A stretch of 64,000 bases of DNA from Sabellastarte sp. h YS-2021. Lineage: Eukaryota > Annelida > Polychaeta > Sabellida > Sabellidae. This document shows, in pieces, positions 20,864 to 64,000 of the stretch (its first letter is position 1; each line of letters begins with the position of its first letter). The notes below the pieces were generated by a model, which saw only the letters and a program-made list of their open reading frames with translations, did no database searches and was not told the origin of the DNA. The stretch is from contig OZ024938.1 in the NCBI GenBank assembly GCA_964017235.1, positions 12,267,454-12,331,453 of the forward strand, written 5' to 3'. A program made the translations under genes and the position numbers.

Positions 20864-21559
20864 CTGGGATTCACAAAAGGTCTTAAGTTTAGGCAATTTT
20901 TTTGCTTAGATAAATTTTAAAGTTATGACTTTTGTCTTAGCTAAGATTTCTCTTAAATTGGGATTCACAAAAAGTGCTTAGCAAAATCTTAGCTGAGACA
21001 AAATTTGTGCAAAAAGTCTTAACTATTTTGAATTCAAATTAACTAATCTTAGTAAAACAAAATTATTTTTCATCAATAAATACACCAAACATGCTCTTTA
21101 AAATTATAAACAGATTTGTTACTTTTTCTTTGTAAAATTAGGTAAAAATAGTAGTTTTTGTGTTTTATTCTGAGTCAGCCATTTTTATGACAATATTTTT
21201 ACCACAAAAAGGTAAAATGTGGAAATTTATAGGTAATTAAATAATGTAAATTTTTATTACAATTCACAGAAGTTACTTTTATAGGAAGTATAGATCCCCA
21301 TAGTATATTTTTTTTGGCATAACAAAGGGTAAAATGTAAATACATGCAATGGAATATTTTAAAATTGTCTTAAGTCTGCCCTGCAGTGGTCTTAAACTTA
21401 TGACAAAATCTAAGACAAATTTTTGTCTGAGACCTTTTGTGAATCCCATTTTGTCTAAGCAAAAAAAGTCTTAACTTTATGACAAAATTCTTGCACAGTT
21501 AAGACTTTTCTCTTAAAGTTATGACAATTTTTTGCTTAAGACCTTTTGTGAATCCTGGC
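20864..21559. mobile_element. Foldback MITE with CCTGGG target duplication
   Basis: The left end runs GGATTCACAAAAGGTCTTAA and the right end is its reverse complement (CTTAAGACCTTTTGTGAATC). Further inverted copies of the TTCACAAAA...TCTTA motif lie at about 20952 and 21430. CCTGGG flanks both sides (20858-20863, 21560-21565). Related array units show the empty site with a single CCTGGG (for example near 28122). Confidence 0.75.
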
Positions 21560-24845: not shown

Positions 24846-24921
24846 AAAATTTACACAGTAATTGTCATTTATGAGGCTTGGACCCCTTGGCAGGCTTCTG
24901 GGAGAAAGTGGAGGCCTTGCC

Positions 24922-26780: not shown

Positions 26781-26903
26781 TATTCTTGGAGATGACATAG
26801 TTGTTGATAATACTTCTAACTTCTTCAAAGATGAAATAAAGCAGTTGGGTTTGGTAAAACACCAAAAAATCCTTGTCGTTGAAAACACATCTTCACTCTC
26901 CAC

Positions 26904-27102
26904 GCGCCAAACGAAAAAGATGCTATGACGTCACGTTGTCTAGACAGCAAGGAAGTACGAGGCGACACCTGGCGAATGCGCTCTCTTGACTGGTCCTGCC
27001 GGTATTATATACAGGACGTCTTTTGGTGACGTTTGGCGGGACCGGTCGCGCCGACTGGTAAAGCAATTGTCCATTGGATAGGATGTATTAACACAATAAA
27101 AA
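26904..27102 (-). repeat. DIRS copy F: right terminal repeat (5' end of the element)
   Basis: It runs from GCGCCAAACGAAAAAGATGC to the end ACACAATAAAAA and includes TGACGTCA at 26926-26933, GTCTAGAC next to it, and CCATTGGATAGGATGTATTA. It is diverged from copy B and carries a small rearranged stretch near 26985-27015. Confidence 0.8.
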
Positions 27103-33371: not shown

Positions 33372-36300
33372 TCAACTGGAAGAAAGAAACTTTTCATAAT
33401 CTTCTATATTGACATTGACTATGAAACTGCTTCTTGTGTATCTGACTTTGTTGTGAATCAACCAAGAATACAAAACACGGGTGAGAAAATGAGCAGTTTC
33501 TGGGATGTGTTGGCAACCTTGTCTATGTTCTTTCCACTGATCAAAAACATTAAACTGTTCCTCAGTCAGAAGCAGAAATGATTGACTTGAATCAACTTTC
33601 ACTCGTACACCATTCAAGTATAGCCCATACAAAAACAGTCCAGTTGATTCATCTAAGTGTAGGGCCCTGTGCAATGGATTGCTCTTCATATCCTGCAACA
33701 CATTAACAGTAAAAGTACTAACAACTAGAAAAATGTTTTTGCTAACAAAAACTAAGCGTCCCAAAAAGATTAAATGCAATATAATATATACTAGAAAAAG
33801 GTTTTTGAAAATAAAAACATGCAGTGCTGAGAGAAGAAGTGAAAGTTAAGCAGACAGTGTGGAAGTTTATGCATTAACATGAAACAAAAATTTAAGCTTT
33901 ATTTTGTTTTCTATGGTCATAAATTGCGAAAAGTTAATTGTAAAAATGCTGAGGCTAAGAATGCATAAAGCATCAATACTTATAATAAGTTGAAAGTTAC
34001 ACCATAAAACTACTTAATTAAAGAGTAACAGTACTTTATAAATGCCATATATTTATTTACATTTCAGAAAAAAGGCGCAGTAAAATTTGAGCCTTTAGAA
34101 AGGCAAGAAGTTTATAACACAATGCTCTGAACACATCTGTCCAAATGAGTACATAAAAGGTCAATGTTCCCATAAGCCTCTTTATATCTTATGAATAACG
34201 CTCATTTCTATTTAGATATAACTGCCAGTCTTTGACAGTCCCCAGAGAATTAGTCCACTGGGTATATGCTGATAAGGGATAAAATCAATAGTTAATGTGT
34301 CTCCCCCAATCTCCCTGTTTTAGTATATTCATGAAGAAATGCTCATATAGGGAGTAAGATGTTATCTTTATCTATGCTCTGTTGAAAATGTCAGTGATAT
34401 GTAGATTTATGTATAAATAAGGGACATAGTAAAGAGGGAATCCACTAAAGAATATGTTTGCATTGCTGAATTATTAGTTTACTGCAGAAGAATGGAAGTC
34501 AGAAGAAGTGATAATTAGCTGAAAATGGGAATTTATAAATGTGTCATTATCAAACTGCTGCACTGAAATAAGCTTGTAAATATTTGGACCCAGTTTTTTT
34601 ACAACAAAACAAGCATAATTTAATGCATATCTTAATTTTAGATAATGACAAAATAGAAATGTATTTTGCCTGCTTTAATAGTATGTATAAGTCATGAGTG
34701 CAATTTCAAAAAGTTACACCCTTTGTACTAAGATATGAAAATAACATTAAGATAATGACATCATTAATATTGAAATATTACGAGCTATTAAGACTTTCCA
34801 CATATGGTTTCCTACTACCTCTTAAAATAATGTAAAACTGTAAAAGCAATAATAAAGATATGAGGCAACAAACCGAAAAATTGATATTTTATGACCTCAG
34901 TCTGACTCGTAAGAGGGGTCAGAGGACTAATTTGACCAGCTACCTAGACTCTCGAATTCCAGCTACCTGTTAATACATTCTAAAGCTGTAAAAGCAAAAA
35001 TCCAAAGGACATATGACCCCTATTTTATGACCCCAGTTTGACCCATAAGGGGTGGGGGGTGGGTGGGGTCAGGCGGTAAACGTGATAGACTATCTTAACT
35101 CCTCACATAGGTTCTAAAGCTCTAAAAGCAAGAATAAAGGAGATATAAGGCAAAAACACTGAATCAGCTATTTCATGACCAAAGTTTGACCCATAAAGGG
35201 GGGGGGGGGGTCAGGGGGTAAATCTGACCGGCTATCTGTATTCTTAACTTGCAAATTTAATAAGTAAATTAAATTTTTATAAGTTAATACCCTATCCAAT
35301 GGACAATATGCTAAACCGGTCGGCGCAGACCGGCCCGCCAAAAGTCAGAAAAAGATGTCCTGTGTTTCCACCGGCCCTCCGGTCCTCACACTGCACTCAC
35401 CAGGTGGCGCATCGTACTTCCTTGCTGTCTAGACAACCTGACGTCATGGCATCTTTTTCACTGTCTAAAACTAATAGACCCCTGGTAAGCTGATAGCGGG
35501 GTCGGTGGGAGGGTCTTGTGTGTCCATTGGATAGGGTATTAACTTATCAAAATTTAATTTACTTATTAAATTTGCAATTTTATTGCGTTAATACATCCTA
35601 TCCAATGGACAATATGCTGAATAACTACCACTTGGTTGGCGGGTAAGTTACTAGGGACTATATGAACTCAGAAGAAAACTAACAAAGGAATCCACTATGC
35701 TGGGTCGACTCCAAAGGTCAGGAAACCCATAAGGCGTGTGGTCGGTCAACAGAGGCCGGATGACCGGTCCAGACCGACCTACCCCCCCTTTTTGAACAGA
35801 CCTCCTCTGAGGTAGGGAAGGGGAGGGATGAGTTCAGTCCCTGAGAAGTTAAAAACCTCCCGAAGGAAGCACGTCAGAGTTTTTTTTTTGTTTTTTGTTT
35901 AAAGTTGCTTCTTAACTATATGTACAATATATACAAATGTGCACTATTTACATATGTACAAGTCTCCTCTGTGCCCTGGTCAGTGGTGGATCTGTTGGGC
36001 AGCCACTACTGGTCCCAGATGGAAGAGCTCTGAGTCGGCCCAAGCCACATCCTTCAGATAAAATTGTGTGAAGGTGTTGTGAGATTTCCAGTGGCAGGCC
36101 GACAGAATCTGATATAAGGAAACTCCCGACTGGAAGGCCTTAGATGCAGCAAAGGCCCTTACATCACGGGCTTTAACCTGGTGTAAGGTCAGGGCCTGCT
36201 GATCAGAGAGTTCGTAGCACTGGATCACAGTTTGTTTAATCCATGAGGAGACAGTGGCAGGGGAGATATCTTTATCAAAGCCTTTCTTGAAGGAGATAAA

Positions 36301-39300
36301 GACTAATTCCTTGTTCTGCCTAAGGTCCGAGGTCCTGTCCAAATACTAGCGTAAAGCTCTAACTGGACAATTTTATTTATATTTTATTTATTTGGGGTTT
36401 AACGTCGCTTTCAACACTGTACAGGTCATATCACGACGGGTATTTGGAAGGGCAGAGGAAACCAGTACATAGAGTTCGCTAGGGTTGTGTACTGTAAACT
36501 GCCGACCAACAGCAAGCAACTACCAGCTTTCCTACTTGAGCCCGTGTGTGGATAGAACCCCGGTCTCAGAGGTGGGAGGCGAGAGTGTTACCACTCTGCC
36601 ACCGTGGCCCCTCTCTAACTGGACAAAGGGATCTGTCAGACTTGAGGGATTTATCCAAAGTTGGGGCCAGGGCTGGGATAACCACTGGGGCCACACTGTT
36701 TGGACCCTCCTTGGCCAGCTGATTCTTGGATAGAAAGCTGGGTGATGGATACAGCGACACCTTAGACCAGTTGGACTGGTGCCTAATGTTCTTGTGCTGC
36801 CAGGCGTGTATCTCACTCCTCCTTTTGCCAGAATCCAGGGCTACGAGGAAAACAGTTTTGAGTGTTAAATGCTTCAGAGATGCCTCTCCTAGGGGCTCGA
36901 AAGGAGGCTTAGTAAGCTGGTGTAATACCAGAGAAAGGTTCTAAGAAGGAACTCCCCTTCTACCTTTGGGCCTGTCTCTCTGGAAACTGTCCAGGAGACG
37001 AGTAAGATTTTCGTCTTTGCCGATGTTAGTGGGGGAATTTCCCATTTTGTCAGCAATGGCAGATCTGTAATCATCAATGGTACCAGGTTGCAGCTTCCTG
37101 TCGTGAAAGAGGTCCAAGAGGAAGTCTGCAATGGATTTCACAGGTGGTGACCTGAAGTCCACCTGATTAGAGAGGCACCACTTTTGAAAAATGGTCCACT
37201 TTGCCTCATAGACTGATCTGGTTGATCCTCTCTGAGGAGCCTCAATTCTCGCTGCCACAGCCTGAGAGAACCCTTGTTTCCTGATAAGTGTGGCTCTAGG
37301 AGCCATGCATGGAGATTCAGGTTTGACAGACTTCTGTGAGTGGTCTGATTGAAGGGCTGAGTTAGAAGGTCGGGCATTTGAGGCAATAGTAGGGGAATCT
37401 GGCTGGACATCTCCACCAGGTCCCAGAACCAAGTCATGTTTGGCCACCCCGGAGCAATGAGGATTACCCTCTTACAAGGGCAGTCTTGCAATTTTTCCAC
37501 CACTTTGCCCAAGATAGCTGTCGGTGGAAAGGCATAGGCATCCAGATCCCCCCAAGGAAGGCTGAGTGCATCTATTACAGTGGCCTGGGGGTCCGGAACT
37601 GTTGATACAAAGAGGGGTAGCTTGCTGTTGAATCTTGTTGCAAAGAGATCTATTTGAGGTCGGTGCCACCTTTGGCATATCCTTTGAAAAACTTGTGGGA
37701 GAAGGGACCATTCTGTCTGGATGGTCTGCCTCAGTCTGGACAGCTTGTCGGCCAATACATTCAAACGACCCGGAATGTGTCGTGCCCGTAGAGTGACTTG
37801 CTTGCTGGTACACCAGGTCAAGATTCTCCATAGTAGGGCACAAAGTGGGCCGGACCTCATACCTCCCTCTTTGTTTATGTAAGCTACTACTGTGGTGTTG
37901 TCGGTTGCTACAAGAACCATTTTGCCCATGCATAGATTTTGAAACTCTTATAAGGCTAGCAGAACTGACTTGAGTTCTAGATAGTTTATGTGCAGCTTGC
38001 TTTCTGGAAGGGACCAAGTTCCTCTGGCAGTGAACTCGTTTAAGTGAGCGCCCCACCCTTCTTTTGATGCGTCTGTAAAGACTTGAAGAGCATGCTGCAA
38101 TGGGTGTAATGGTTGGCCGGTGAGGACATTGTTCTCGTTTAGCCACCATTGTAGATGGGGGTGTAAAGATCTGGGTAGGGGAATCCTCTTCTCTAGGGAT
38201 TCCAGAATTCTCCAATTGTTCTTGAGATGCCACTGAATGGGTGTCATGTGTAACCTGCCTAAGTGAACTTGTTTCTCTGTGGCTGTTAAGAGACCTATCA
38301 GAGACATGAACTCCCTCACCGAACACGTCCGGAGGGAGAGTAGTTCCCTTATCTTCTCTTGTAAGTTCTGCCACCGGTCCAGTGTTAGTCGGACCCGACC
38401 AGACTGAAGGTCGAACTGGTAACTGACAAAATTGAAGATTTGTTTGGGTTCTATTCCGACTTTTCTGTGTTGACCATCCAGCCCAGATCCTGGCACATTT
38501 TCACTAAAAATTGTGTATGTAGGAGACATTACCGTTGGGATGTGGCTCTCACCAACCAGTCGTCTAGGTATTGGTGGATCCTTATACCCTTTTGAGTGGC
38601 CATCAGCTTTACCTCCTTTGCTATGATAGTGAACTCCATGGGAGATGTAGAAAGGCCAAAGGGAAGAGCTTTGAACTGAAAGGTCTGACCTTGAACGTGA
38701 AATCTTAAGTACTTCCTGGACTGTTCCTGTATTGGAATGTAGAAATAAGCATCCGTGAAGTCTACGGAGGTTACCCATTCTCCCTGTTGGAGAGATGTTC
38801 TGATGGTTTCCGGGGTCTCCATCTTGAATTTTTTGGTCTTGAGGAAAAAATTCAGATTGCTCAGGTCTAGGATTGGTCGCCATTTGTTTTTGGACTTGGG
38901 GACTAGAAATAGTCAGTTGAAAAACCCTAGTGAAGTCTGCTTTTGTACTAGTTCTATGGCCTTTTTGTCTATAAGCTGATGTAATGCCTCTAACAGTTTC
39001 AGGTTTCTGTGAGGATTGCCATAACAGCTTACGACTGTGGGAACTTTTGATAATTTTGGCCGGGTCCGGAAGAGGAGGGTGTAGCCCTCTTTCAGGATTT
39101 GAACAACCTTCGGAGCGGCACCCAGATCCAATCACTTTTTCCAAAACCTTTGTAGTCTGGCCCCTACAGGTAAGTTTCTGACAACATTGGGAGCATTTGT
39201 TACATTGTTTACATATGACAATGGAATGACACAAGAAACACTTTTCACAGATTTTAATGTATTTTGCTCTGAGTGACAAACTGCTGCCCCGGGAGCAGTA

Positions 39301-42300
39301 TGAGCAGAATGAACAACATTTAGCTTTGCATTTAAAAAAGTGTCTATTGTCTCTGTTGTCGGGCTCCCGGTCAGCAGCAGAGGTTTCAACTAAGTTACAC
39401 ATTGATTGTCATTTACGCTGCTGCTGACCTTTGGCCGGTCGGGATGAGTACTGGTGTCTAGCCTTCTGCTTTCTACGTTGAGTGCGGGACATGTTCTTCC
39501 TAGCCGGCCTATCCTGACGACTATCTGTCCTGGAGTCCTGTCTTTCATAGGGGTGGTATCTTCTGCTCTTGTAGACAGTACCGGACCGACCCTTGTCAAA
39601 ATTTGAGATATCCTCCTCTGCCTTTTTAACAACATTGTCCGGGAACAGTGTATCTAGCTGAAGTGGGGCTGTTCGTAAGGCATGAAGAGTGTCCGCCTTC
39701 ACACCGGCCTTGAGATAAATCAGGTAAGAGTCACGTCTCAGCAGGGTGGTATTGGCCATATTGACAAACACAAATTCAGTAAGGTGCTCCATGGATTTCG
39801 CCATGGCCTGGCAAACACTAGAGTTAAAATCTAGAAGAAACTGAAGTTCGTCTACTGCTGAAGACACTTTATTTGCTGTCTTGCCCTTGGATTCGACTCT
39901 GATAGCTTTAAGTTGAGAGTTCATATTTTCCTGGATTTTCAACAGACACCGGTTGAAACTGGCTGCATGATTGCAAATGACTGGATTCGCGTGCAGACCT
40001 CTCCCACTTGCGCAGACTTTCCTGAGATATGGGGCGTGACATGGGAGGAGAGCTAGCAATACCGGCCTGTCGAGCTATCCTGAGATATGTACTGTTGAGT
40101 CTTGAAGCTCCAGTATGCCAAGAAGAAACAGCCTGGTCAGAGTCCTTCTTTCAGTTGGGATGGAACCCGTACCACTTCTGCTGAGACTTTGGAGGGCGGA
40201 CAAACTGATCCTTTAAAAGTCCTGCTGCCTCAAAGTATGTGTAGGATAACCCTGGACTAGTGTAATGTTCAGCTTTGCCATTTTCTTACACAACCATTCG
40301 GCGGTGGGTAGGTTAACAGAAGTCTTGCCCGGTTTGTGAAGCTTCGGGCCGGCAAAGGGGTTGTCTTCTGATGTAGTAGCAGCAGAATCAGTGTCTGGTA
40401 TGTGACTCCAACCCATATATGATCTGATTCCGCGCATGGTTTCCCGGTATGACTGCTCTTCGGACAAAGATTGTTCATGATCAGAGATGTTAAGTTCCTG
40501 ATCGTCCGACAGTTCACCTTCTTCGGGAAGAATATCCAGGGGAGGTCGGTCAGAAGATAAAGATTCTGAGTCGGAGTCACTAGAGGAGGGAGAGTCCTTG
40601 CGTGACACATCAAAAGCAGAGGATAACTGTCTCTGAACCTTGGCTGAGGCCGGTGGGTCTGGCTGAGTAGAAGTTGAAGCCTTAAGATCCGACTTGTGAT
40701 GACAAGAGTCGGTGGCCGGTGAATCTATAGCTGTGTCAGTCGGTGGAACAGACTGAGAGGCTGGCTTCAAAAAGGGGTCGGTCCGGGCCACGTTAGTCGG
40801 TGGAGCATGAGCTGGAGCCACCTTCACTGTACTAAAGACAGGGTCCCATGGAGGATCCAGCGTCTTGGCCAAAAGTAAGGCTTCCAGCCTGTTAAATCTG
40901 TCCGACCACTTCTTGTCCAGGTCGGCAATCTTGGTGTCGGTAGTGGAGGTGGAAGGCTTGTTCTGGTCGGCTGAAGAGGTCGGAGGTCGGCTGGTGGTAG
41001 ACTTGACCGACTTGGTAGATTTAGATGAAGATGAATGTTTTGTCTCTGCCTTCTTAGCCTTCTTTTCCACCGGTCCACTCAAACCAGAAGCACCGGGGGT
41101 GCTCTGGCCATCCACAACCCCCACCACCGACACAAGTGCCGGGTCCACAAGGGTGGGACTGAGAGTGTCTGAGTCCTTTACAGGTGTTAATGACTTGGCT
41201 TCTTTCTTCTCTTTCTTGATCTTGTAGGAGGGGGTTGAGAGCTGGGTCTTCTGTTCCGGTGTCAAAATATCACAATGACCACAAGGTTCTGGTGGAGTCT
41301 TGATACAAGGGTCAGAGCCTTTCTTCTTGTCGCGACACCTTGCACATACAGCGTGGTGGTCAAAACCAGCCATCATATGGCCGCAACCCCCCCTACGCTG
41401 ACTAGGAGAACACATGACAGTAGCAAGCAAAGTGAGGAAGTGATCTGTAAGGTATATAAAACCGCACTTCTAAAACTCACCAACAAAGTTCCAAATCCAA
41501 TATATATATAACAATGATCTATAACATGTGAGGAAGTGATTCGCAAAGTCTAAAAGTCCAGCACTTCTACAAACTCACATAAAACTTAAAATTCAAACAA
41601 TTTCCAAATATTCGTTCAAGCAGTGCATGCGCCAAACGAAAAAGATGCCATGACGTCAGGTTGTCTATACAGCAAGGAAGTACGATGCGCCACCTGGCGA
41701 GTGCAGTGTGAGGACCAGCCGGCCAGTGGAAACGCAGGACGTCTTTTTCTGACGTTTGGCGGGCCGGTCTGCGCCGACCGGTTTAGCATACTGTCCATTG
41801 GATATGATGTATTAACGCAATAAAAATATGGTTTCCCAATACCTCTTAATACATTCTAAAGCTGTAAAAGCATGAATAAAGGAGATATAAGGGACAATAT
41901 AAAAATTGGCTAATTTACGACCCCAAGGGAATTTGACTTGCTTTCTAGACTCTCCACATATGGTTTCCTAATACATTTTATGGCTCTAAATGCAATACAT
42001 AAGATAATAGGGGGGTTCACAGGAATTTTAAGCTTTCTGGTTAGTACCTGTGAGAAAATCACTCCTAAATCAGTCATTATTCATCGGATCGTTCCCAAAA
42101 TCTAACCAGCTCGCATTTTTGATGGTATGAACATGTGTGTATCATTACAAGCGTCTGTGGTAAGTAGATTTTGCTGAGCGGCGATGACGGGCGGGTGTAC
42201 CTAAAAACTTATTTTTGATCATGTGACCTTGATAAAGATCAAAGGCCAAATTTAAGTATGTGGAAATATTTTCCCACACCTAAGGTATATAACTGCCAAA

Positions 42301-45300
42301 TATGGTTAAAAAGCTTCCAATAATAAGGGAGATATTCAAGGGAGACCATAATGCGGCGGCAAAGAAACTGACGCGAAAACAAGCGCCCTTTTCAGGGACA
42401 CTTAATTATCACTTGGTGTATACTTTAATAATGTAACAGACATTTAAAAGTTTTCTACTTAATATCCCCAACTGTGAAATAAAACCCACGAAAAACAATA
42501 ATAGAAAGCACACATTTAACTACCCTGTATAGGGATGAATTACAGAGATGTACATGGTATGTAAAGGGGGTGGGGGGAGAGATAACTTCATTATGCACTT
42601 TCTTTGACAGTACCAATATCAGTGCATGGACAATAGACATGGAATTTCTATATCATAACAATGAAGGACGTTAAATATACTTCAAAAGTTGTCCCTAAAA
42701 TGTTTCCACAATACTAAATTGCAAATTTAATAAGTAAATTAAATTTTTATAAGTTAATACCCTATCCAATGGACAATTGCTAATCCGGTCGGCGCAGACC
42801 GGCCCGCCAAACGACAGAAAAAGTCGCCTTATATGAGTGCATAATGCCCCCACAAGCGTTCCGGTCCCTGTGTGTGCTCGCAAGGTGGCGTGTCGTACTT
42901 CCTTCCTGTCTAGACAGCGTGACGTCATAGCATCTTTTTCGTTGTCTAAACCTATTAGACCCCTAGTAAGCTGATAGCGGGGTCGGATGGGAGGGTCTTG
43001 CGTGTCCATTGGATAGGGTATTAACTTATAAAAATTTAATTTACTTATTAGCAATTTTATTGCGTTAATACATCCTATCCAATGGACAATTGCTGAATAA
43101 CTACCGCTTGGTTGGCGGGTAAGCTACTAGGGACTAGCAGTGAACTCATAAACAGAAGTAAAAAACATCCCTTTCCAAGTCTAAGTAGTTCTTGGAGTCA
43201 AGAACCTTAAAGGCTCTGGTCGGATATCATCATTCGGTTAACCGTTATTCGGGTTTGAACCGTCAGAACCGACCGCCCCTCCCCCCCCCCTTTTGTCGCC
43301 TAGAGACCTGCTCTGATCTAGGGGAGGAGAGGGCTGAGTTCAGTCCCATAAAACCTAAAAACCTCCCACAAGGAAGCAAATGAGAAGACTTTTTTTTTTT
43401 TTTTTTTTTTAAATTATATGTGCAATATATACAGACGTACAGATATCTACATATGTACAGATCTCCTCTATGTGTTGGACTGCTGGTGGATCTGCTGTGC
43501 AGCCACTACAGGGCCCAGATGGTAAAGCTCTGAGTCAGCCCAAGCCACATCCTTTAAATAAAATTGTGTAAAGGTGTTATGTGACTTCCAATGACAAGCT
43601 GACAGGATTTGTTCTAAGGAGACTCCCGATTGGAAGGCCTTAGAAGCAGCAAAGGCTCTGACATCATGGGCCTTGACCTGATGTAGAGTGTGGGAATCAT
43701 GGTCCGAGAGCTCATAACATAGGATCACAGTCTGCTTGATCCATGAGGAGATAGTGGCAGGGGAGATGTCTTTGTCAAACCCTTTCTTAAAGGAGACGAA
43801 AACCAACTCCTTATTCTGCCTGAGAGCTGAGGTCCTGTCCAAATAGTAGCGCAAAGCTCTGACTGGACAGAGGGACCTGTCAGACTTGAGGGACTTATCC
43901 AGAGTAGGGGCCAGGGCTGGTATAACCACTGGGGCCACACTTTCTGGGCCCTCCTTGGCCAGCTGATTCTTTGAGAGAAAGCTGGGTGAGGGGTACAGGG
44001 ACACCCTTGACCAATCAGATTGGTGTCTGATGTTCTTGTTTTGCCAAGCATGAATCTCACTTCTACGTTTGCCTGACCCTAAGGCTAGCAAAAAGACTGT
44101 TTTGAAGGTTAAATGCTTCAAAGAGGCTTCCCCAATTGGCTCAAAGGGTGGTTTTGACAATTGATGTAGAACCAGGGAGAGGTTCCAGGAAGGGATTCCC
44201 CTCCTGCCCCTGGGTCTGTCCCTGTGGAAGCTATCCAGAAGACGAGTGAGATTGTCATCTTTGCTGATATTGATGGGGAAATTACCCAATTTATCAGCAA
44301 TGGCAGACCTATAACCATCAATGGTACTGGGCTGTAACTTTTTGTCTTGAAAAAGGTACATAAGAAAATCAGCTACTGCCTTCACAGGGGGTGCTCTGAA
44401 GTCCACCTTATTAGAGAGGCACCACTTTGTAAAAATGGCCCATTTTGCTTCATAGACTGATCTGGTTGATTTTCTTTGAGGAGCTTCAATTCTTGTTGCC
44501 ACCTCCTCAGAGAAACCGTGCTCCTTGATTGCTGAGGCTCTAGGAGCCAAGCATGGAGATTTAGATTTGTCAGATTCCTGTGAGGGGTCTGGCTGAAGGG
44601 CTGAGTCAACAGGTTGGGCAGCTTGGGCAAACTCAGTGGGATTTGACTGGACATGGCTACCAGGTCCCAAAACCAGGGCATGTTTGGCCACCCTGGGGCG
44701 ATCAGAATGATTCTGCTGCACTGGGAGTCCTGCAACTTCTCCACTACCTTGCCCAATATGGCTGTTGGGGGAAAGGCATAAGGGTCCAGATCCTCCCATG
44801 GTAGGCTGAGTGCATCCACTGCTGAGGCCATGGGATCCGGAAAGGGTGACACAAAGAGAGGTAGTTTGTTGTTGAATCTGGTGGCAAAGAGGTCTATTTG
44901 AGGTCGGTGCCACCTGTAACATATTGCTTCGAATACCTGCGGAAGGAGGGACCACTCTGTTTGAATGGTCTGTCCTAATCTGGACAGCTTGTCTGCCACC
45001 ACGTTCAGCCGACCCGGAATGTGTCGGGCTTTCAGTGTAACGTGTTTCCTGGTACACCAGGTCAGGATTCTCCATAGTAAGGCACAGAGTGGGCCTGACC
45101 TCATGCCTCCCTCTTTGTTTATGTAGGCCACCACTGTTGTATTGTCGGTGGCCACTAGTACTATATTGTTTACACAGAGGTCCTGGAATTCTCTTAAGGC
45201 TAGGAACACTGCTTTTAGTTCTAGATAATTTATGTGTAACCTGCTTTCCGGCAGTGACCAGTGGCCTCTTGCAGTGCGTTCGTTTAAATGAGCGCCCCAA

Positions 45301-48300
45301 CCTTCTTTTGATGCGTCTGTAAAAATTTGCAGAGCATGCTTTAAGGGGTGTAATGGTTGACCTTGTAGCACACTGCCTTCCTCCAGCCACCACCTTAAGT
45401 GGGGGTGCAGTGATCTGGGCAACGGAATAACTTTCCCCAGAGATTCTGGTACCCTCCAATTGTTTTTGAGGTGCCACTGTATGGGCCTCATATGTAGTCG
45501 ACCTAAATGGACTTGCTTTTCTGTGGCTGTTAACAGGCCTATCAAGGACATGAACTGCCGGACCGGACAGGCCGGAAGTGACAGGAGAGTCTGTATCTTC
45601 CCTTGAAGGGCTCTCCACCGGTCCGGAGTAGGTCGGACCCGTCCGGACTGGAGGTCGAATTGATAGCCTACAAATTCGAAGACCTGCTTGGGTTCGAGTT
45701 CTGATTTTTCTACATTCACCAACCAGCCCAGTTCCTGACAAATCTGGACCAGCTTTTGGGTATATTGAAGGCAAAGGGGGTGGGAGCTGGCTCTCACCAA
45801 CCAGTCGTCTAGGTACTGGTGGATTCTTATACCCTTGCTTATAGCCATCAGCTTCACTTCCTTGGCTATTACCGTGAACTCCATAGGAGCTGTTGAGAGG
45901 CCAAAGGGAAGTGCTTTGAACTGGTAGGTCTGGCCCTGGACATGAAATCTGAGATATTTTCGAGACCTCCGGTGGATGGGTATGTGAAAGTAGGCGTCCT
46001 TGAAATCTATTGAGGTGACCCATTCCCCCTGTTGAAGGGAAGTCCGGATGGTTTCCGGGGTTTCCATTTTGAATTTCTCCACCTTGAGGAAAAGATTGAG
46101 TTTGCTCAGATCCAGTATAGGTCTCCACTTTTTTTCTGGCTTTGGAACTAGAAATAGTCGGTTGAAGAAGCCTAGAGATTTGGGGTTTTGTACGATTTCT
46201 ATTGCATTTTTGGCTATAAGCTGATGCAATGCCTCTACCAGGTAGCTGTTCCTGTGGGGATTTACATAACAGCTTATGACCGTGGGATTTCTTGTTAACC
46301 TGGGTCGGATCCGAAAGGGAAGGTGGTAGCCCTCCCTTAGGATTTGAACTACTATTGGGTTTGCACCCCGATCCAACCATTTTGTCCAATAGTTTTGAAG
46401 TCTGGTCCCTACAGGAAGATTGGGAGCAACATTTGGGACATTTGCTACAGGTTTTACAGAACACAAGTGATCTACAAACAAAGCATTGTTCACATATTTT
46501 AATGGCTGAACTTTGTTTAAGTTTACAGACACTGGACTTATGCCTTTCTTTTGCGGCTGCCCGGTTGCAAAAGGTGCAGGAGAAACAACAAATGAATTTA
46601 CAGAGTTTAAATTTCTTGCCACATGAATTAAAGTCTGTTTTGAGTCCGGTCCGGTCTGCTGATCCGGTACTCCACTGCAAAGTTCCTGCCTTTTGCCCTG
46701 GACCTTCAACTGAAGGTCTGTACTTTGATTGTCATTTAAATGAATTGTATCCCCGGGCCTGTCGCGAGGAGTACTTCTGCCCCTGGAATTTAGCCTTTTT
46801 CTTTTGAAATCTGCCAATATTCTTCCAGGCAGGCCTAGTCTGTTTGTTTTCTTGATAGGATTGTTCGGGTTTCTTATAAGGGTGGAAACGTGAGTCCTTC
46901 CGGCCAGTGGAACCAGGGTGAGAACGGCCTCTATCCTCGAATTTGGAGATATCCTCCTCTGCTTTTTTCAACACAAGATCAGGGAATAAAGTATCCAATT
47001 GCATAGGGGCCTGTCGGAGAGAAGCCAGTGTATCCTGTTTGATGCCCGGTTTGACCAGTGCGAGGTAAGAATCTCGTCTGGCCAAGGTGAAGTTGTACAT
47101 GCTCACAAATGCGAAATCTGATAGATGTTCCATCGTCTTCGCCATACATTGAAAAATGGAAGAGTTAAAATGCATGAGATGCTGTAGCTCGTCCGTGGCA
47201 CTACTGGCTCTACTGGCAGACTTGCCTTTACTATGTTCACCTTGAAGGACCTTTAAGTGGCCGGACATTTCCTGTTGAACCTTATTTAAGCATCTGCTTA
47301 AACCCGCCGCTTGATTACACATGTAGGAGGCCTCACGTGCACTTTTCTCCCACTTGCGAAGAGTGTCCTGAGCAATAAAGCGCGAAGCAGGAGCTGGTGA
47401 TGAGAGAGCAGAATATCTGGCAATTCTGCTGAAAGTACTGTTAATTTTTGCATTGTCACTGTGCCAGAAGGAGACAGAACCAGCCGGTTTGTCTTGACTG
47501 GGATGTAAACCATATCATCTTCCTTGCGACTTGGTAGGTTTAATGAATTGGTCCCTTTGCAGTCCACCGGGTTCAGACCCTTTAGAAGGGTATCCTTGCG
47601 TTAATGTGAGATTTAGTCTATCCATCTTACGGCATAGCCAATCATCCGTAGGTAGTTGTACACTGATCTTCCCTGCCGGTTGGATCTTAGGGGCGGCAAA
47701 GGGGTTGTCTTCAGCACTGGCTAGAGTTGTATCCAAATCTGGAATGTGATTCCAGTTCATATAAGCTCTGATACCTCGCATTGTTTCTCTATATGTCTGT
47801 TCCTCAGACGGGGCCTGGTCAACATCAGAGAGTGAATTATCCGGATCAAGATCTGAGAGTTCACCTTCTTCACCTTTAACCGACAAATCTGGCATAGAAG
47901 CAGATTCTGATGCACTGTCGACGTCCATTTCCGGTTCAGAATGGGCTTGAGAACTTAATAATCCTGATGAGCCGGCCACCGGCTTGAGAACTGGCATATC
48001 AGAAGGGTGGTCAGTAGATAGAGATTTTACCCCTTGCTCATGAGATGAAGGCACTTTGGAAGTCGGAGCAAAAAGGGGGTTAACAGTTTCAGAGATGCCA
48101 GCAGGGGATGGCCTGACCGGTGAGAGTTTCACTGGTTGAAAGGTCGGTTCCGGTTGGGAAAGACTTTTAGATAACAACATAGCTTCCAGTCTGTTAAACC
48201 GGTCTAACCATTTAATATCCATTGCCTCCAGTTTACTCTCTGTAGACGCTTTAGACGGCTTGGGAGAAGACTGGCGTTTCTTGCCCTTTTCCGGTTTTTC

Positions 48301-51300
48301 TTTGGAGGTTGTAGGGGATTTAATCTTCTTGGCTTTCACGTTAGATGAAACGCTACTCGCCTCTTCTGAGCTCTGCATGTGCTTCTTAGCTTTCACAACT
48401 TCCATGTTGCTACTCGCCTCTTCTGAGCTCTTAATCCCGGTATCTGTAGATACACCCAGCACAGAAACTAGGGCAGGGTCGACTAACGTACACTCTTCTA
48501 TAGCCGCTTTGGTTTCCTTCTTTTCCTTTTTATTTTGATAAACTGGGGTGGCTAAGCGTAGTTTTTGTTCTTCAGTAAGAATATTGCATGAAGGACAGAT
48601 ATTTCCTTTAACACAAGGGTCAGACCCTTTCTTTTTGTCCCTGCAACGAGCACAATGCGCGTGCTGGTCAAAGCCAGCCATGGCGTGTCCACAAACTCCC
48701 CTACGCTGACCAGGAGATGCCATTATATCCACAATGAAGCAAAATTCTTTTCAAGTAAAATAAGGTTCCTTGATTAAATTAACACACACCAATATAATAA
48801 CTTGCGAGAGCTGTGAAAAAACACGTCCACACACACGTGCGCCAAACGAAAAAAGATGCTATGACGTCACGCTGTCTAGACAGGAAGGAAGTACGACACG
48901 CCACCTTGCGAGCACACACAGGGACCGGAACGCTTGTGGGGGCATTATGCACTCATATAAGGCGACTTTTTCTGTCGTTTGGCGGGCCGGTCTGCGCCGA
49001 CCGGATTAGCAATTGTCCATTGGATAGGATGTATTAACGCAATAAAAACCAAAAATTTGCCAACACCAAGTTTCCTCTGCTATGTATCCATGCTGAAAAA
49101 AATTGAACACACTGAAATGGTGGGAGATCCATCTATACTTTGACATGTCAAGGAAAGAAAATTGTAAATTTAAATAAGTAAATTAAATTTTTGTAAGTTA
49201 ATACCCTATGCAGTAGACAATTGCTAATCCAGTCCGCGCAGACCAGCCTGCCAAACAACAGAAAAAGTCGCCTTATATGTGTCCATTATGAACACAAGCT
49301 GGCCGGTCCCCTTGTGCACTCGCCAGGTGGCACATCGTACTTCCTTCATGTCTAGACAGCGAGACATCATAGCATCTTTTTCCTTGTCTAAACCTATTAA
49401 GACCCCTAATAAGCTGACAGTGGGGCTGGTTGGGAAGGCCTTGTCTGTCCATTGGAAGACCCAAGATTGGCTTTTTTTTGGGGAGACTTTTTTTGTTGAA
49501 TATTGTATGTACACTAATGACTTAACTAACATGTACATATATACAGATCTCCTCAATATTAGGGCTACTTGTGGATCTGCTGGGCAGCCACTAACGGGCC
49601 CAAATGGAAAAGCTCTGAATCAGCCCAAGCCACATCCTTCACACAAAATTGTGTTAAGGTGTTATGTGACCTACAGTGGCAGACTGATAGGATCTGTTCC
49701 AAAGAGACTCCCGACTGGAAGGCCTTGGAAGCAGCAAAGGCCCTGACATCATGGGCTTTAACCTGATGTAAGGTGAGGGTCGCCTGATCAGAGAGGTCAT
49801 AGCATAGGATCACAGTTTGTTTGATCCACGAGGAGATAGTGGCAGGCAAGATTTCCTTGTCAAAACCTTTCTTGAAGGAGACAAAGACCAACTCCTATGT
49901 TCTACCTAATGTCTGAGGTCCTGTCCAAATAGTAATGCAATGCTCTGTCTGCACATAAGGACCTATCATACTTGATGGAGCTATCCAGAGTTGGGGCCAT
50001 GGCTGGTATAACCACTGGAGCCACACAGTCTGGACCCTCTTTGGCCAGTTGATTCTTTGACAGAAAGCTGGGAGATGGGTACAGGGACACCTTAGACCAA
50101 TCTGACTGGTGTCTGATGTTTTTGCCAAGCATATATTTCACTTCTACGTTTGCCCGACCCTACGGCCAAAAGGAAAACCGTATTGTAACTCAAATGTTTA
50201 AAAGAGACCTCCTTGATTGGTTCAAAAGGAGAGGTTCCAAGAAGGGATCCCCATTCTTCCTTTGGGTCTGTCTCTGTGGAAGCTATCCAGGAGACGAGAG
50301 ATTTTCATCTTTGCTGACCTTAAGGGGTGAATTTCCCAATTTATCAGCAACTGCTGACGTCTACCCATCAAAGGTTCTGGGTTGTAACTACCTGTCCTGG
50401 AAAAGGTACTTACTTCGTAGGGGTGCCCTGGCGTCCACCTGATTACTGAGGCATCACTTTGTAAAAATGGTCCACTTTGCTTCAGACTGACCTGGTTGAT
50501 CTCTGAGGAGGCTCAATTCGTGCTGCCACTGCTTCAGAGAAGCCCTGCTCCTTCATTGCTGAGGCTCTAGGAACCACGCATGTCGATTTAGGTTTGACAG
50601 ATTCCTGTGTGGAGTCTAACTGAATGGTTTCGTGAGCAGGTTGGGTAGGCTCAGTGGAATCTGACTGGACATGGCCACTAGATCCCAAAACCAGGGCATG
50701 TTTGACCACACCGGGGCAATGACGATTCTCCTGCATGGACAGTTTGTAGTTTATACACCACTTTTCCCAAGATGGCTGCTGGTGGGAATGCATATGGGTC
50801 CAAATCCTCCCAGGGCAGGGCGAGTGCAGAGACCGCCCAGGCCTGGGGGTCTGGCACTGGTGACACAAACTCTACTAACTTGTTGAACCTTGTTTCTTTG
50901 GCAGCTGATACAATGCCTCCAACAGGTACAGGTTCCTGTGGGGATTTACATAGCAGCTGACAATTGTGGGTTCTCTGGTTAAGTTTGGTCTGGTTTGGAA
51001 AGGTAGAATATACCCTTCTTTTAACATTTGTACTACTTTGGGTCCGGCCCCCAAGGTTTCCCAAGTTTCCAAAAACTGGTTTAGTCTGGCCCCTACAGGC
51101 AGATTTTGTACAACAACTGGGACATTTAGTGCAAATTTTACAGAACACAATTGATAAGGCGCGGGCAGTTGAAGATTCTGTTCTGCTGTTAGAACGCTAC
51201 AGTGGGGGCAATCTTCTTTATTCACACAAGGATCAGTACCTTTGAGTTTGTCCCTGCATCTCACGCAATACGTGTTTATCAAATCCAGCCATCAAGTGGC

Positions 51301-54300
51301 CACATGCCCCCCTTTTTTGACCTGGAGAAGACAACGTCCTATAATTTCTAAAATTCACTCTGATATAAAGTTCAATTTATGAAATATAAAATAAAGTTCA
51401 ATTTATGAAATATTACAGAGAATACTTCGATTTTAAAACTTCACTCAAAATTTCCGTTTGCACAAGGCACGTACCAAACGAAAAGGATGCTATGAAGTCA
51501 CGCTGTCTAGACAGGAAGGAAGTATGATGCGCCACCTGGCGAGTGCACAAGGGGACCGGCCAGCTTGGGTGTTCATAATGGACGCAAATAAGGCCACTTT
51601 TTCTGTCATTTGGCTGGCCGGTCTGCGCCGACCAGATTAGCAATTGTCCACTGGATAGGAATCACAGGATGTATTAACACAATACAATTGTCATGACTTC
51701 AAATTTTTAATACTTAATATTCAGTGACTTACATAGCAAGGCTCCTCTGATGACCTATATTCTGGAGCCAAACAGTCTCTTAATTCATCTTCTTGAAGTA
51801 GAACTGGAGGCTTAAACTTGAATCCCTTCAGGCTGTTTCTCACATTTCCTGATTTATAGGGATCAGCAAAGGCCTCCAAACACTCCAGTAAATCTAAATT
51901 AAGCATCAAAAGATTACTTTTTTCGGTATCAATCATACATAATTCATTTCAACTTAACATCACTTTCAATGGCCTTTTGGGCATTCACGACATAAGATAG
52001 TACACCTTATGAAGCATATGTATGTTACAGTGAATATGTGAAATCAGTAAATACGAAATACATTGTTAAAACTACAGTGAAATTCAGTTCTTGAACGAGA
52101 AATATATCTTAATCTTATTATGTTGCTTGTGCCATACATCATAATTCGATAAATATTTGGACATTTAAATTTATAAACCTGTCTATTTATATTACAATTT
52201 ATTTTGCATGAAGAAAAAATATTACAAGTTTTTATCACATGCAAATGCTTTTGAAATTATTAACTGATGTAAAATAGTTATCCCGGTGCTGGATTGTAAA
52301 CAACGATCAAACTTTGAATATGACAAAGCCATTTAAAGTCAGAAATAACTGTTAATATGAACACATAGCAGATAACACCCAGCCTTTAAAGATATAAAGT
52401 CTTCATAATGATTTTAGTAAATACGTGTATTTACAGACCAAAAAAACAATGATTTCGCATATTTACTGTAACATGTACACTAAACCATCATTGTTTGGAT
52501 TTCTAAATAGCACATCTCAGAGTAAGAAGACTTGTCCCTTACCTTGGCAATACTGCACTCTGTCATAATGTAACGATACAAGAAACTATGCATTTCACAG
52601 CTCTACAAGAATGGGCAGCTTTTCTTGTGACTGAATTTTTTCTGATAAGAAAAAATCTGCCCTAATCAATTGCCTTATTTGTCACTGTTATTACCTAAGG
52701 CTGAATTTTGATTCTGACAAACAATGGTTAGATAATATGCATATGCATAAGTAAAAAGGTCACATATTGCAGGCAGTTATTTATTTTTGCATGACTGGAC
52801 ATATAACGCTCCTTATTTTCGAAAAACTGTTGCTTTCACTTGATTAACTTACTTATTACCATATTTATATTAAAACTTGTAGAGCCAAGAAATATCCAAA
52901 TACCTTGGTGCTCTGTCTTCTGCTTGGTCTTTTGTTTCTTCAGTCTAGGCATCATAATGTCCCTCCACCTTCTACAAACAAGTGTTGCAGTTAGAGCAAA
53001 GGGATCTTCTTCACTCTCCATGGCACCAAAGAGAATTTTATCAAGAATCTCAGAGGGAAGGTCGTTTACCTGCACATTGTAAATTAAAAAAACAACAATT
53101 ACTTACATGTGGCCAATGTTGAATCAATCACATCTTTAGATTTGGCATGGACCTCAAGGACGGTCTAGTCCCTTTTATCACCTATTTAAGATAAAACCAG
53201 TTAAATACTTAATGTTTACCTGGCATGTATGATATAAAATTTGAATGCACCAAAAAAAATTGGGGCTATGATATCGTAGTTGTTTTGACATCCCAAATCT
53301 GCAAGACCACAAACAAAGGAAATGCAGGATACTGAAAGTATCAATGAACCTGTATTACCTTAAAGGAAGGGTAAAATTTCAAATCAGACCCACCAAAAGA
53401 TTCAGGGCACATGATTTCCTGTAAGCTGTCTTCATATCCCAAACCTGTAGGACCAATAATAAAGATCTGTTTAAGGTACACTTTTGCACCAAATTTGATA
53501 AAAATATGGCCTAAGTTCAGTCTACAGGACAAAAAATATAACAAAGCATAAAAATTTTAATTGAAATTTCACTGTATCTGGTTGAAAACCTGAAGCATAT
53601 ATCTTTTCAGATACACCATTCCACCAAATTTGGTGAAAAACCAATGAAGATTTTTGGAAGTTATGGGTCAGGTTAAAGTTTTTGTGATGGGCAGGACAAA
53701 CAAGATTACTGTGCCCATTTCCACCAAAGTGACGGACAATAAAGAGACTAGAAGCTCTGTTTCATTGTCTTTCTTCCTACTTGTTTACTTTTTCTTTCGT
53801 GGACTGTCACATACTTACATTCATTTCTAATGCTGGCTGCTTGTTGCAAGAGGGACAGTACCATTTCACCAAAGAATCACATTCTGACTTTTTCATTGAC
53901 ACACATCTCAGATGATACCATTCATTGCAGTTATCGCAGGCAATCATTGGGCTACAATCAATATAATATTGTGTGACAGCTCCAGTTATTCTTTAAAATG
54001 TATATTCTTTACAATTCACACACAAGAAAGAATATTGCAATTTATATAGGTTTTACACCCTAGACCACATCTTAATAAAGCATTAATTGCAAGCACATAC
54101 ACATTAGTGGTGGGATCGGCAGGTTAAATGGCAGATCGAGCATCATATGTTAGAAGTGAGTTGAACTCGAGTTAAACTCGAGTAATTTTCGGAATAAAGT
54201 ATTTCGTTTGTTAGCCATTAATATGGCGAAAATATTTTACATGACCGTACATGAGGCAAAACTTTGACCTGGAAATGGGTTTTCGCGATAGAAATTTAAG

Positions 54301-62618: not shown

Positions 62619-63248
62619 AACCAGAGAATACACATTCACTATAACATATACAACTTAATCAGCTAAAATATTGAGATTTGGGAAAAGCTAAGAACAAATT
62701 CAAATGAAAGCCTATTGGAGAATATTGTATTCTTTTTTTGCGTTTTACGCAGAAATTTAAGATGGCCACCAAAAAATGGCACAAGACAACTATTTTTGGG
62801 AAAAGTCACCAGTAGACTGCTGATACCCTGTGGATCAAACATTTTGTCAAAATCGCTCTATCTCGCACTGTTTCTGAGATACTAAATATTTTTATTTTCA
62901 GCGTTAAGAAAAATTGTGCCAATTAGTTAATTGTTAATAAGTCGGCCATTTTGTATTGGATCACTTGCACAATTTTGCAAATTTAATAAGTAAATTAAAT
63001 TTTTATAAGTTAATACCCTATCCAATGGACAATTGCTAAACCGGTCGGCGCAGACCGGCCCGCCAAACGCCAGAAAAAGACGTCCTGTGTTTCCACCGGC
63101 TGGCCGGTCCCAGTACTGTGCATTCGCAAGGTGGCGCATGGTATTTACTTCCTGTCTAGACAAGATGACGTCATAGCATCTTTTTCGTTGTCTAAAACTA
63201 TTAGACCCCTAGTAAGCTGATAGCGGGGTCGGTGGGAGGGTCTTGTGT

Positions 63249-63344
63249 GTCCATTGGATAGGGTATTAACTTATAAAAATTTAATTTACTTATTAAATTT
63301 GCAATTTTATTGCGTTAATACATCCTATCCAATGGACAATTGCT
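63249..63344 (-). other. DIRS copy D: internal complementary region (ICR)
   Basis: It reads GTCCATTGGATAGGGTATTA through TTATTAAATTTGCAATTTTA to CCTATCCAATGGACAATTGC. Both halves are exact antisense matches to the left tip of D (62975-63034) and to the right-tip sequence known from B. It carries the ACAATTGCT variant found in D's own terminal repeat. Confidence 0.92.
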
Positions 63345-63689
63345 GAATAACTACCGCTTGGTCGGCGGGTAAGTTACTAGGGACTTATGTGAACTCACAA
63401 GTAATAGCAAATTTTAACCTACGGTCTAGGCTGACTTCGTCAGGAGACCTATAGGTCCAGGCCTGGGTTGACTTTAAGGTCAGGAAACCCTGCAAGGCCA
63501 TGGTCGGTTGCCAGCAGCCGGTTACCCGGGGCTATACTGCCGTCGCCCCCCCCCCCTTTTGCAGACCTGCTCTGAGGTAGGGGAAGAGAGGGATGAGTTC
63601 AGTCCCAGAATGCAAATAAACCTCCCAAAGGAAGCACGCCACACTTAATTCTTATGTACATGAAGAAACTGTTTATACATCTATACAAA

Positions 63690-64000
63690 TCTCCTCAATC
63701 TAAGGGCCACTTGTGGATCTGCTGAGCAGCCACTACCGAGCCCAATTGGTAAAGCTCTGAATCAGCCCAAGCCCCGCCCTTCATATAGAACTGTGTGAAG
63801 GTATTGTGACTTCAGTGGCAGGCTGACAAGATTGGATCTAAGGAGACTCCCGACTGGAAGGCCTTAGAAGCAGCAAAGGCCCTGACATCATGGGCTTTAA
63901 CCTGATGTTAAATGTGGGCCTCCTGGTCAGAGAGCTCATAACATAGGATCACAGTCTGCTTGATCCAAGAGGAGATAGTGGCAGGTGAGATGTCTTTGCT
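63690..64000 (-). pseudogene. DIRS copy D: C-terminal part of the tyrosine recombinase, partial
   Basis: The - strand encodes pieces aligned to the end of B's YR: KAHDVRAFAASKAF-like near 63890-63860 and a C-terminal LYQLGSVVAAQQIHK-like end near 63710. The CHWKSHNTF segment (near 63800-63830) is short by a few bases (GTGACTTCAGTGG against GTGACTTCCAATGAC in B), so the frame is probably broken there. Cut by the window end. Confidence 0.7.

What the first reader, a model, noticed from the sequence alone, without database searches (positions are those of the whole stretch)
42719..49047. A nearly intact DIRS1-type retrotransposon that could be recently active
Copy B keeps matching terminal repeats (no differences seen over ~175 bp apart from one extra T), an ICR, complete RT, RNase H and YR catalytic residues, and only one nonsense codon (in gag). 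DIRS elements are patchy in animals, and a near-intact copy gives a usable reference for the family.
Basis: partly seen in the sequence, partly recalled or inferred. Interest (0 to 1): 0.75.

Follow-up and report, generated by a model that had tools for sequence, protein, structure and literature searches.

The report
Retrotransposon with a leaky gag stop
A young DIRS-type jumping element, probably in an animal genome, is really there, and its family appears to make its DNA-joining enzyme by letting ribosomes read through a conserved leaky stop codon, so that about 2,350 bases of one gene are kept readable in two frames at once.

Summary
Window 42716-49047 (minus strand) is a DIRS-like retrotransposon with 179-nt perfect inverted repeats, an internal complementary region (ICR), gag, RT/RNase H and tyrosine recombinase (YR). 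The family is young: 28 of 29 other genomic loci examined are at least 98% identical. This copy is broken: 29 of 29 loci lack its gag stop, and 28 of 29 keep 5 nt that its ICR has lost. It sits in a segmental duplication of roughly 40 kb or more.

The unexpected result concerns expression. A 13-mer, TAAATGACAATYA, marks the gag end in 4 of 4 window copies that keep the junction (flanks 26-46% identical) and in 14 of 14 fetched loci of a second family. UGA-CARYYA is a published readthrough signal. In frame behind it lie a Cys-rich block (14 Cys invariant in three copies) and, in all, 1,087 stop-free codons to YR, 783 of them shared with pol; synonymous shuffling of pol predicts 34 stops in those 783. 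I infer that Gag-Cys-YR is made by UGA readthrough. Pol is in the +1 frame, perhaps by shifting at the same UGA (unproven). Eight literature searches here showed no such report for DIRS. No expression was measured.

The parts
48850..49047 (-). Left terminus (5' end of element): ITR 48850-49028 plus divergent outer end to 49047
42716..42939 (-). Right terminus: ITR 42761-42939, right extension out to the terminal trinucleotide at 42716
43003..43094 (-). ICR: 43003-43050 complementary to the right terminus, 43055-43094 to the left terminus; 5 nt shorter than in 28 of 29 sister loci
46732..48723 (-). gag (Met at 48723; 663 codons; premature TGA at 47517-47515, absent from 29 of 29 sister loci)
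46726..46738 (-). Gag-end 13-mer, TAAATGACAATCA, proposed recoding signal; the UGA is 46734-46732
46411..46602 (-). Cys-rich block in the gag/YR frame behind the UGA (14 Cys invariant in copies B, A, E), overlapping the start of pol
44382..46967 (-). Pol frame (861 aa, +1 of gag): RT about 45657-46148, RNase H about 44979-45338, C-terminal region 44385-44972 where a methyltransferase domain would be expected; first Met only at 46067, inside RT
43468..46731 (-). YR frame, same frame as gag, open 1,087 codons; first Met at 46380; recombinase domain about 43471-44511
35245..41834 (-). Copy A, another DIRS family (about 76-78% to B), decayed; junction TGA at 39411
49159..51689 (-). Copy C, internally deleted; lacks the gag end
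62975..64000 (-). Copy D, cut by the window end; no junction found in its continuation on the C8 duplicate
23956..27102 (-). Copy E, third family, left part only; junction TGA at 24867
14701..16043 (-). Copy F, distant fragment; 13-mer with TGA at 15479, between a gag and a pol remnant

Best explanation
This is a member of a recently active DIRS-like (DIRS1-type) retrotransposon family. Shown: termini, ICR, gag, RT/RNase H, YR, many near-identical copies, and two defects of this copy. Inferred from strong sequence evidence: the family makes its tyrosine recombinase by reading through the gag UGA, which sits in a conserved CARYYA context. This gives Gag - Cys-rich domain - long linker - YR in the gag frame. 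The linker is the pol gene read in another frame. Selection keeps that frame free of stops but, beyond the Cys block and the YR start, does not conserve its amino acids. Inferred more weakly: Pol (RT/RNase H) is made by a +1 shift from gag, possibly at the same UGA. As in the published DIRS model, a circular intermediate guided by the ICR would then be integrated by YR without target-site duplication.
For: (1) Stop depletion: 0 stops in the 2,349 nt of the pol/YR overlap, against mean 34.2 and minimum 18 in 2,000 synonymous permutations. A codon-final T before AA/AG/GA occurs 0 of 191 times, against 150 of 591 elsewhere. The third sense frame is not depleted (78 against 65.0). Also seen in copy A (1 vs 19.5; 1 vs 19.9) and E (3 vs 14.6). 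(2) The 13-mer TAAATGACAATYA occurs 4 times in the window: at the gag end of B, A and E, and between the gag and pol remnants of F. 12 of 13 columns are invariant, against 5 of 78 flanking columns. In the genome it is exact in 25 of 29 B-family loci, 6 of 8 B subfamily loci and 14 of 14 fetched E-family loci. (3) UGA-CARYYA gave about 15% readthrough in a reporter in a mammalian gene context (PMC4132726, passages). (4) A Cys-rich block behind the UGA in the gag frame: 14 invariant Cys in B, A and E, silent T/C change in 7 of those 14 codons, and the third codon position of this frame is the fastest in the block (0.43 against 0.38, 0.33, summed over three pairs), whereas after it pol's third position is the fastest. 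Cys counts exceed all 2,000 synonymous resamplings in each of B, A, E. (5) In B no Met lies between the UGA and the end of the block, and stops are depleted there: 0 vs 8.7 in B; over 450 nt 0 vs 8.3 in A and 1 vs 7.3 in E.
Against: No RNA, ribosome or protein data. All families come from one genome. In A an in-frame AUG lies three codons behind the UGA, and in 7 of 14 E-family loci one lies 15 codons behind it, so a start behind the UGA is not excluded for those families. Copy F gives no significant depletion (0 vs 1.44, P=0.15; 9 vs 14.2, minimum 7). Small or decayed blocks do not help: E1 2 vs 3.9, C1 4 vs 5.4. When codons are drawn from the rest of pol instead of shuffled in place, zero stops near the UGA also occur by chance (means 5.3, 3.6, 3.6, minimum 0). 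One antisense frame of pol is also low in stops (31 vs 43.9). 2 of 29 B-family loci and 2 of 8 subfamily loci have a 4-nt deletion right behind the UGA, which changes the frame; 3 of 14 E-family loci lose the block by indels. The 13-mer also reads NDN in the pol frame, so part of its conservation could be pol coding. In the B-A pair alone, positions 1 and 3 of the block tie. No Pfam match for the Cys block. The predicted fold 3' of the UGA is not remarkable (z -1.62). The pol frame is open about 80 codons upstream of the UGA in B and A, as expected by chance, so the place of the pol shift is not fixed.
Confidence: 0.72

Rival explanations
1. Ordinary DIRS element whose ORF overlap is open by chance or codon bias; YR is started from an AUG inside or just behind gag.
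For: Long pol/YR overlaps are reported in half of 28 DIRS1-like elements (PMC3266345 Table 3), with no mechanism in the passages read. In B AUGs exist at 46380 and, 21 nt past the pol stop, at 44361; A and 7 of 14 E-family loci have an in-frame AUG 3 or 15 codons behind the UGA.
Against: 0 stops against 34 expected; in B the stretch before the first Met is depleted as well and the Cys block ends before that Met; the AUG position is not shared between families; by my reading the Met at 44361 would cut into the recombinase's N-terminal domain.
Confidence: 0.08
2. Splicing joins gag (or a 5' exon) to the Cys-rich/YR frame, so no readthrough is needed.
For: Splicing is used by some retroelements (recalled); it would also explain a lack of start codons.
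Against: Splicing past pol would not need the frame to stay open through pol, nor a conserved UGA-CAA-UYA. RNA was not available to test it.
Confidence: 0.1
3. The conserved 13-mer serves only Pol (frameshift site or Pol N-terminus NDN); the gag frame behind it is used by some other route.
For: +1 from the UGA enters the pol frame exactly; [quoted passage not shown]
Against: The Cys block and the stop-free YR frame need an entry too, and UGA-CARYYA is a readthrough context.
Confidence: 0.08
4. High identity of copies reflects segmental duplication, not transposition, so the family need not be recently active.
For: Two loci (C8, C7) share B's flanks; window 32.4-64 kb matches C8 at 98.5-99.8%, and the 24-25.2 kb stretch at 100% as rounded.
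Against: 8 of 10 copies with fetched ends have other left flanks, and 7 of these 8 show other right flanks, the eighth right end not being found; places lie on many contigs.
Confidence: 0.03

Closest known systems
DIRS-like (DIRS1-type) retrotransposons, e.g. XtDIRS2/XtDIRS3, AcDIRS2, TnDIRS1a (PMC3266345 Table 3); Xenopus DIRS-37_XT (PMC9210276)
   Same: By published features, not by sequence: length about 6.3 kb (XtDIRS3 6,196), gag of about 650 aa, RT/RH, YR, ITR, ICR with arms of about 40-65 nt, right extension, terminal NTT-type trinucleotide, long pol/YR overlap
   Different: A readthrough signal at the gag end, a Cys-rich domain behind it and selection on the overlap were not described in the passages read; perfect ITR of 179 nt against conserved ITRs of 102-148 in the vertebrate rows read. 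Host not identified, so no closer placing
DIRS-1 of Dictyostelium discoideum
   Same: Three ORFs with the YR ORF overlapping the RT ORF, inverted terminal repeats (PMC5633606, passages)
   Different: No sequence comparison was made here
Stop codon readthrough of the CARYYA type (tobacco mosaic virus)
   Same: Same six-base 3' context; UGA works about as well as UAG with it in a reporter (PMC4132726, passages)
   Different: Here in a retrotransposon, used (by inference) to reach a recombinase
Gag-pol UGA in the retrotransposon Tca2 (PMC2194720, search listing with start of abstract only)
   Same: A UGA separates gag from the next ORF
   Different: Element of Candida albicans; pol lies behind the stop; nothing more was read

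Membership tests
DIRS-like (DIRS1-type) retrotransposon | Inverted terminal repeats | tested here: met
   179 nt, 100%
DIRS-like (DIRS1-type) retrotransposon | ICR complementary to both ends, at the 3' side | tested here: met
   48 and 40 nt, 100%; 5-nt deletion between the arms in this copy
DIRS-like (DIRS1-type) retrotransposon | RT and RNase H | tested here: met
   RVT_1 5e-21, RVT_3 1.3e-6; the 60 best PDB sequence hits shown are named as RT or as polyproteins that contain it
DIRS-like (DIRS1-type) retrotransposon | Tyrosine recombinase instead of a DDE integrase | tested here: met
   Phage_integrase E=1.4e-5 (just under cut-off), Phage_int_SAM_1 over cut-off; R, HxxR, W, Y in place by eye
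DIRS-like (DIRS1-type) retrotransposon | No target-site duplication; terminal trinucleotide shared with the circle junction | tested here: met
   By eye no repeat in the about 22-nt flanks shown; right end GCAA plus TTT/ATT/AAT in 10 of the 11 end pairs looked at, B included, one right end not found. Empty sites were not examined
DIRS-like (DIRS1-type) retrotransposon | Methyltransferase-like domain behind RNase H | tested here: inconclusive
   No Pfam match at E<=10; the region is 78% identical in copy A; structure prediction never ran
DIRS-like (DIRS1-type) retrotransposon | Gag with LAP2alpha domain (reported for Xenopus, PMC9210276) | tested here: inconclusive
   No such Pfam match for either gag piece; none in the PDB for the C-terminal piece, the only one searched
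Ngaro / PAT / VIPER (other YR retrotransposons) | Split direct repeats | tested here: not met
   Ends are inverted repeats; the direct repeats listed pair B with copy C or are short
Programmed stop codon readthrough (CARYYA type) | Stop followed by CARYYA, conserved across families | tested here: met
   4 of 4 window copies with the junction; 14 of 14 E-family loci fetched; most B-family loci
Programmed stop codon readthrough (CARYYA type) | Protein-coding selection on the extension | tested here: met
   Cys block and stop depletion
Programmed stop codon readthrough (CARYYA type) | Measured extended product | not testable with these tools
   Needs reporter, ribosome profiling or peptides

The most novel reading that the evidence does not exclude
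One UGA controls the whole DIRS proteome: termination gives Gag, a +1 shift at the UGA gives Gag-Pol, and readthrough of the same UGA gives Gag-Cys-YR. About 2.35 kb of the element are thus dual-frame: fully coding in one frame and, in the other, held open mainly as a conduit to the recombinase. This would be a general rule for DIRS elements with long ORF overlaps.
Probability: 0.3. Interest if true: 0.8.

Novelty: new variant of a known kind. Interest (0 to 1): 0.55.

Why it matters
The long overlap of the pol and recombinase frames in DIRS elements has been catalogued, but the passages read here give no route by which the recombinase is made. The conserved UGA-CARYYA site, the Cys-rich block and the purged frame turn this into a directly testable claim. 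Under the model a single stop in gag would silence every product of a copy, as in this one. If right, DIRS elements are a case of very long dual-frame coding kept by translational recoding, and the ORFs of DIRS libraries should be annotated anew with Gag-YR as one product. The young, multi-copy family in one assembly also gives material for dating and for expression work.

Tried and rejected
External relatives: no relative of the RT in viral contigs, GTDB genomes, plasmids or phages. Alignment A2 was too diverse to search with. Rfam at gathering scores: 0 matches in the window. An RNA hairpin 3' of the UGA as a stimulator: z -1.62, not pursued. Reinitiation at the ATG that overlaps the UGA: it lies in the third, stop-rich frame. 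Amino-acid conservation of the whole overlap: rejected; fourfold sites of pol differ in 125 of 251 cases in the overlap, as in gag (67 of 132) and the YR-only part (50 of 119). Narrowing the pol shift by stops upstream in copies E and F: rejected, because 14 of 14 other E-family loci show no such stop in the roughly 100 nt fetched upstream and chance predicts openness there. First count over loci was wrong for reverse-strand loci, which had not been turned; one search replaces it. Host: open frames that I recognise from memory as PYM1-like and F-box suggest an animal; the species was not identified.

Literature: 8 searches in a library of open PMC papers only. Listed of found: 25 of 59, 15 of 373, 15 of 16, 15 of 18, 15 of 27, 0 of 0, 12 of 232, 8 of 8. 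None of these titles and abstract starts names readthrough or recoding for DIRS elements. Papers seen: PMC3266345, PMC5633606, PMC6681497, PMC5941688, PMC4132726 (passages); PMC9210276 (part 1 of 5 of the text, and passages); PMC9841425 (abstract, outline, passages); PMC2194720 in search listings only.

Full report
What is there. The element lies on the minus strand. The self-comparison gives inverted repeats 42761-42939 / 48850-49028 (179 nt, 100%) and an ICR whose two arms match the right end (48 nt, 100%) and the left end (40 nt, 100%). One extra T separates the inner edges of the repeats. With the terminal trinucleotide the element runs 42716-49047. Gag starts at 48723 and ends with a TGA at 46734-46732; one premature TGA sits at codon 403 of 663. 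The pol frame is open 46967-44382, with RT (E=5e-21) and RNase H (E=1.3e-6). The YR frame is open 46731-43468 and ends in the recombinase domain. These are features that PMC3266345 gives for DIRS1-like elements, including a long pol/YR overlap in half of its 28 elements (passages). Six DIRS copies or remnants lie in the window, all on the minus strand (A, B, C, D, E, F).

Age and state of this copy. Over 267 base comparisons (179+48+40, partly of the same bases) there is no substitution; by the rule of three (my calculation) this puts divergence under about 1.1%. In one like-for-like alignment that also takes in the outer, divergent part of the ends, B has 2 mismatches in 200, A 16 in 194 and C 24 in 200. 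The own genome (1.786 Gb, 647 contigs; species not named) was searched with 2,119 nt of pol. It gave 41 places, one of them the window; 30 of the other 40 are at least 98% identical. Only 40 candidates of 22,489 were scored, so this is a lower bound. Of 29 further loci examined over window 42882-48000, 28 are at least 98% and 15 at least 99% identical. All 29 have a sense codon where B has its gag stop, and 28 of 29 have the 5 nt that B's ICR lacks; one, L019, does not show them. Of 10 copies whose ends were fetched, 9 could be measured: 5 with 0, 2 with 1 and 2 with 2 mismatches in about 183 ITR positions, apart from small gaps; two of the five are the segmental duplicates. So the family moved recently, and B's gag stop is its own.

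Segmental duplication. The two nearest loci, on contigs C8 and C7 (99.84%), share B's flanks. Window 32.4-42.2 and 49.1-59.1 kb match C8 and C7 at 98.5-99.9%, and 59.2-64 kb matches C8 at 99.8%. The 24-25.2 kb stretch matches both at 100% as rounded; 25.2-32.4 kb was not compared. The first 10 kb do not match at the expected place on C8, nor do places about 100 kb to either side match each other. Hence roughly 40 kb or more is duplicated. B's gag stop and ICR deletion are absent from both duplicates, so most simply they arose after it. A misassembly cannot be excluded.

The open overlap is selected. Gag and YR are in one frame and pol is in the +1 frame. In B the YR frame has no stop in the 2,349 nt (783 codons) that it shares with pol. 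Shuffling synonymous codons of pol predicts 34.2 stops on average, minimum 18 in 2,000 shuffles. The third sense frame is not depleted (78 observed, 65.0 expected); of the antisense frames two are not depleted and one is lower than expected (31 against 43.9). A codon-final T, which would make a stop, precedes AA/AG/GA in 0 of 191 cases but is used in 150 of 591 others. The same test on the other copies gives, observed against expected: A 1 vs 19.5 and 1 vs 19.9; E 3 vs 14.6 and 2 vs 3.9; C 4 vs 5.4, 0 vs 5.4 and 0 vs 1.9; F 9 vs 14.2. The clear results are A and the longer E block; the rest are small or decayed. At the amino-acid level most of the overlap is free: pol's fourfold sites differ between A and B in 125 of 251 cases, as in gag (67 of 132) and in the YR-only part (50 of 119). 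So most of the frame is kept open, not kept alike. The exceptions are its two ends: identity in the YR frame is 0.73 and 1.0 in the last two windows near the YR start, and it exceeds that of pol in the two windows next to gag, 0.44 vs 0.39 and 0.62 vs 0.46.

The entry point. In B the frame has no Met before 46380, and the stretch before it is depleted too: 0 vs 8.7. Over the 450 nt behind the UGA it is 0 vs 8.3 in A and 1 vs 7.3 in E; over 180 nt F is uninformative (0 vs 1.4). So in B ribosomes most likely come from gag. A has an in-frame AUG three codons behind the UGA and 7 of 14 E-family loci have one 15 codons behind it; the position is not shared, but a start there is not excluded for those families. 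All four window copies that retain the junction (B, A, E, F) carry TAAATGACAATYA; 12 of 13 columns are invariant against 5 of 78 around it, and ungapped flank identity is 26-46%. The 13-mer occurs nowhere else in the window. In the genome it is exact in 25 of 29 B-family loci (2 have a substitution, 2 a 4-nt deletion), in 6 of 8 loci that are 92-97% identical to B in pol (the other 2 have the 4-nt deletion), and in 14 of 14 E-family loci, the best-scoring of the 40 scored places apart from the window and its two duplicates. Some of these loci are near-identical to one another. UGA followed by CARYYA gave about 15% readthrough in a reporter built on the mammalian OPRL1 context, and UGA and UAG were very similar there (PMC4132726, passages).

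The extension codes for a protein domain. Behind the UGA, in the gag frame, B, A and E share 14 invariant cysteines. In 7 of these 14 columns the codons differ silently (TGT/TGC), changes that fall on the second codon position of pol. Summed over the three pairs, the third position of the gag frame varies most in this block (0.43 against 0.38 and 0.33; in the B-A pair positions 1 and 3 tie). After it, mostly in the A-E pair, pol's third position does (0.58 against 0.34 and 0.30). If the pol protein is kept and its codons are drawn anew from the rest of pol, none of 2,000 draws reaches the observed number of Cys in B (16), A (17) or E (19); in these draws a run without stops does occur by chance (mean 5.3, 3.6 and 3.6 stops, minimum 0). 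In 11 of 14 further E-family loci the first 116 codons have 17-20 Cys; 3 lose the block by indels. Stops in the gag frame over the about 500 nt fetched are 0 in 10 of 14, 1 in 3 and 7 in 1, but in 3 of those 10 the frame has passed into pol. Pfam shows no such domain. By analogy with nucleocapsid zinc knuckles (recalled) it may bind nucleic acid.

Pol. In B it has no Met before the RT domain, so it too needs recoding or splicing. [quoted passage not shown] But the pol frame is open about 80 codons upstream in B and A, as chance predicts, so the place of the shift is not shown.

Limits. One genome, no expression data, no structure model, no access to Repbase or Dfam. The methyltransferase and LAP2alpha features reported for DIRS elements were not recovered by sequence profiles, which neither supports nor excludes them.

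Noticed in passing
window about 24-64 kb; G000 C8:20.17-20.21 Mb and C7:103.46-103.50 Mb: Roughly 40 kb of the window (24-25.2 and 32.4-64 kb compared), with copies E, A, B, C and the start of D, is present on three large contigs (59-64 kb checked on C8 only) at about 98.5-100% identity: a young segmental duplication or a misassembly.
   Followed up: partly
window 14.7-16.0, 24-27.1, 35.2-41.8, 42.7-49.0, 49.2-51.7, 63.0-64.0 kb: All six DIRS copies or remnants lie in the same orientation, B and C only about 110 bases apart.
   Followed up: no
L062 and L064; B-family loci L020 and L029: A 4-nt deletion directly behind the gag UGA, which brings the pol frame into the gag frame behind the stop: a possible variant lineage or plain decay.
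   Followed up: partly
window 10995-11528, 14287-14562 and 52839-53102, minus strand: Open frames that resemble PYM1 (two) and an F-box protein (one) by eye (recalled, not tested); the DIRS fragment F lies next to one of them.
   Followed up: no
window 9928-10724, 13186-14048, 21559-22898, 27098-28274: Several minisatellite arrays (periods about 145, 168, 393 nt), some shared between distant places of the window.
   Followed up: no
window 43390-43410: A run of 21 T on the plus strand (A on the element strand) between the YR stop and the ICR.
   Followed up: no
window 46967-44382, antisense: One antisense frame of pol has fewer stops than synonymous shuffles predict (31 vs 43.9; 2 of 1,000 as low).
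   Followed up: no
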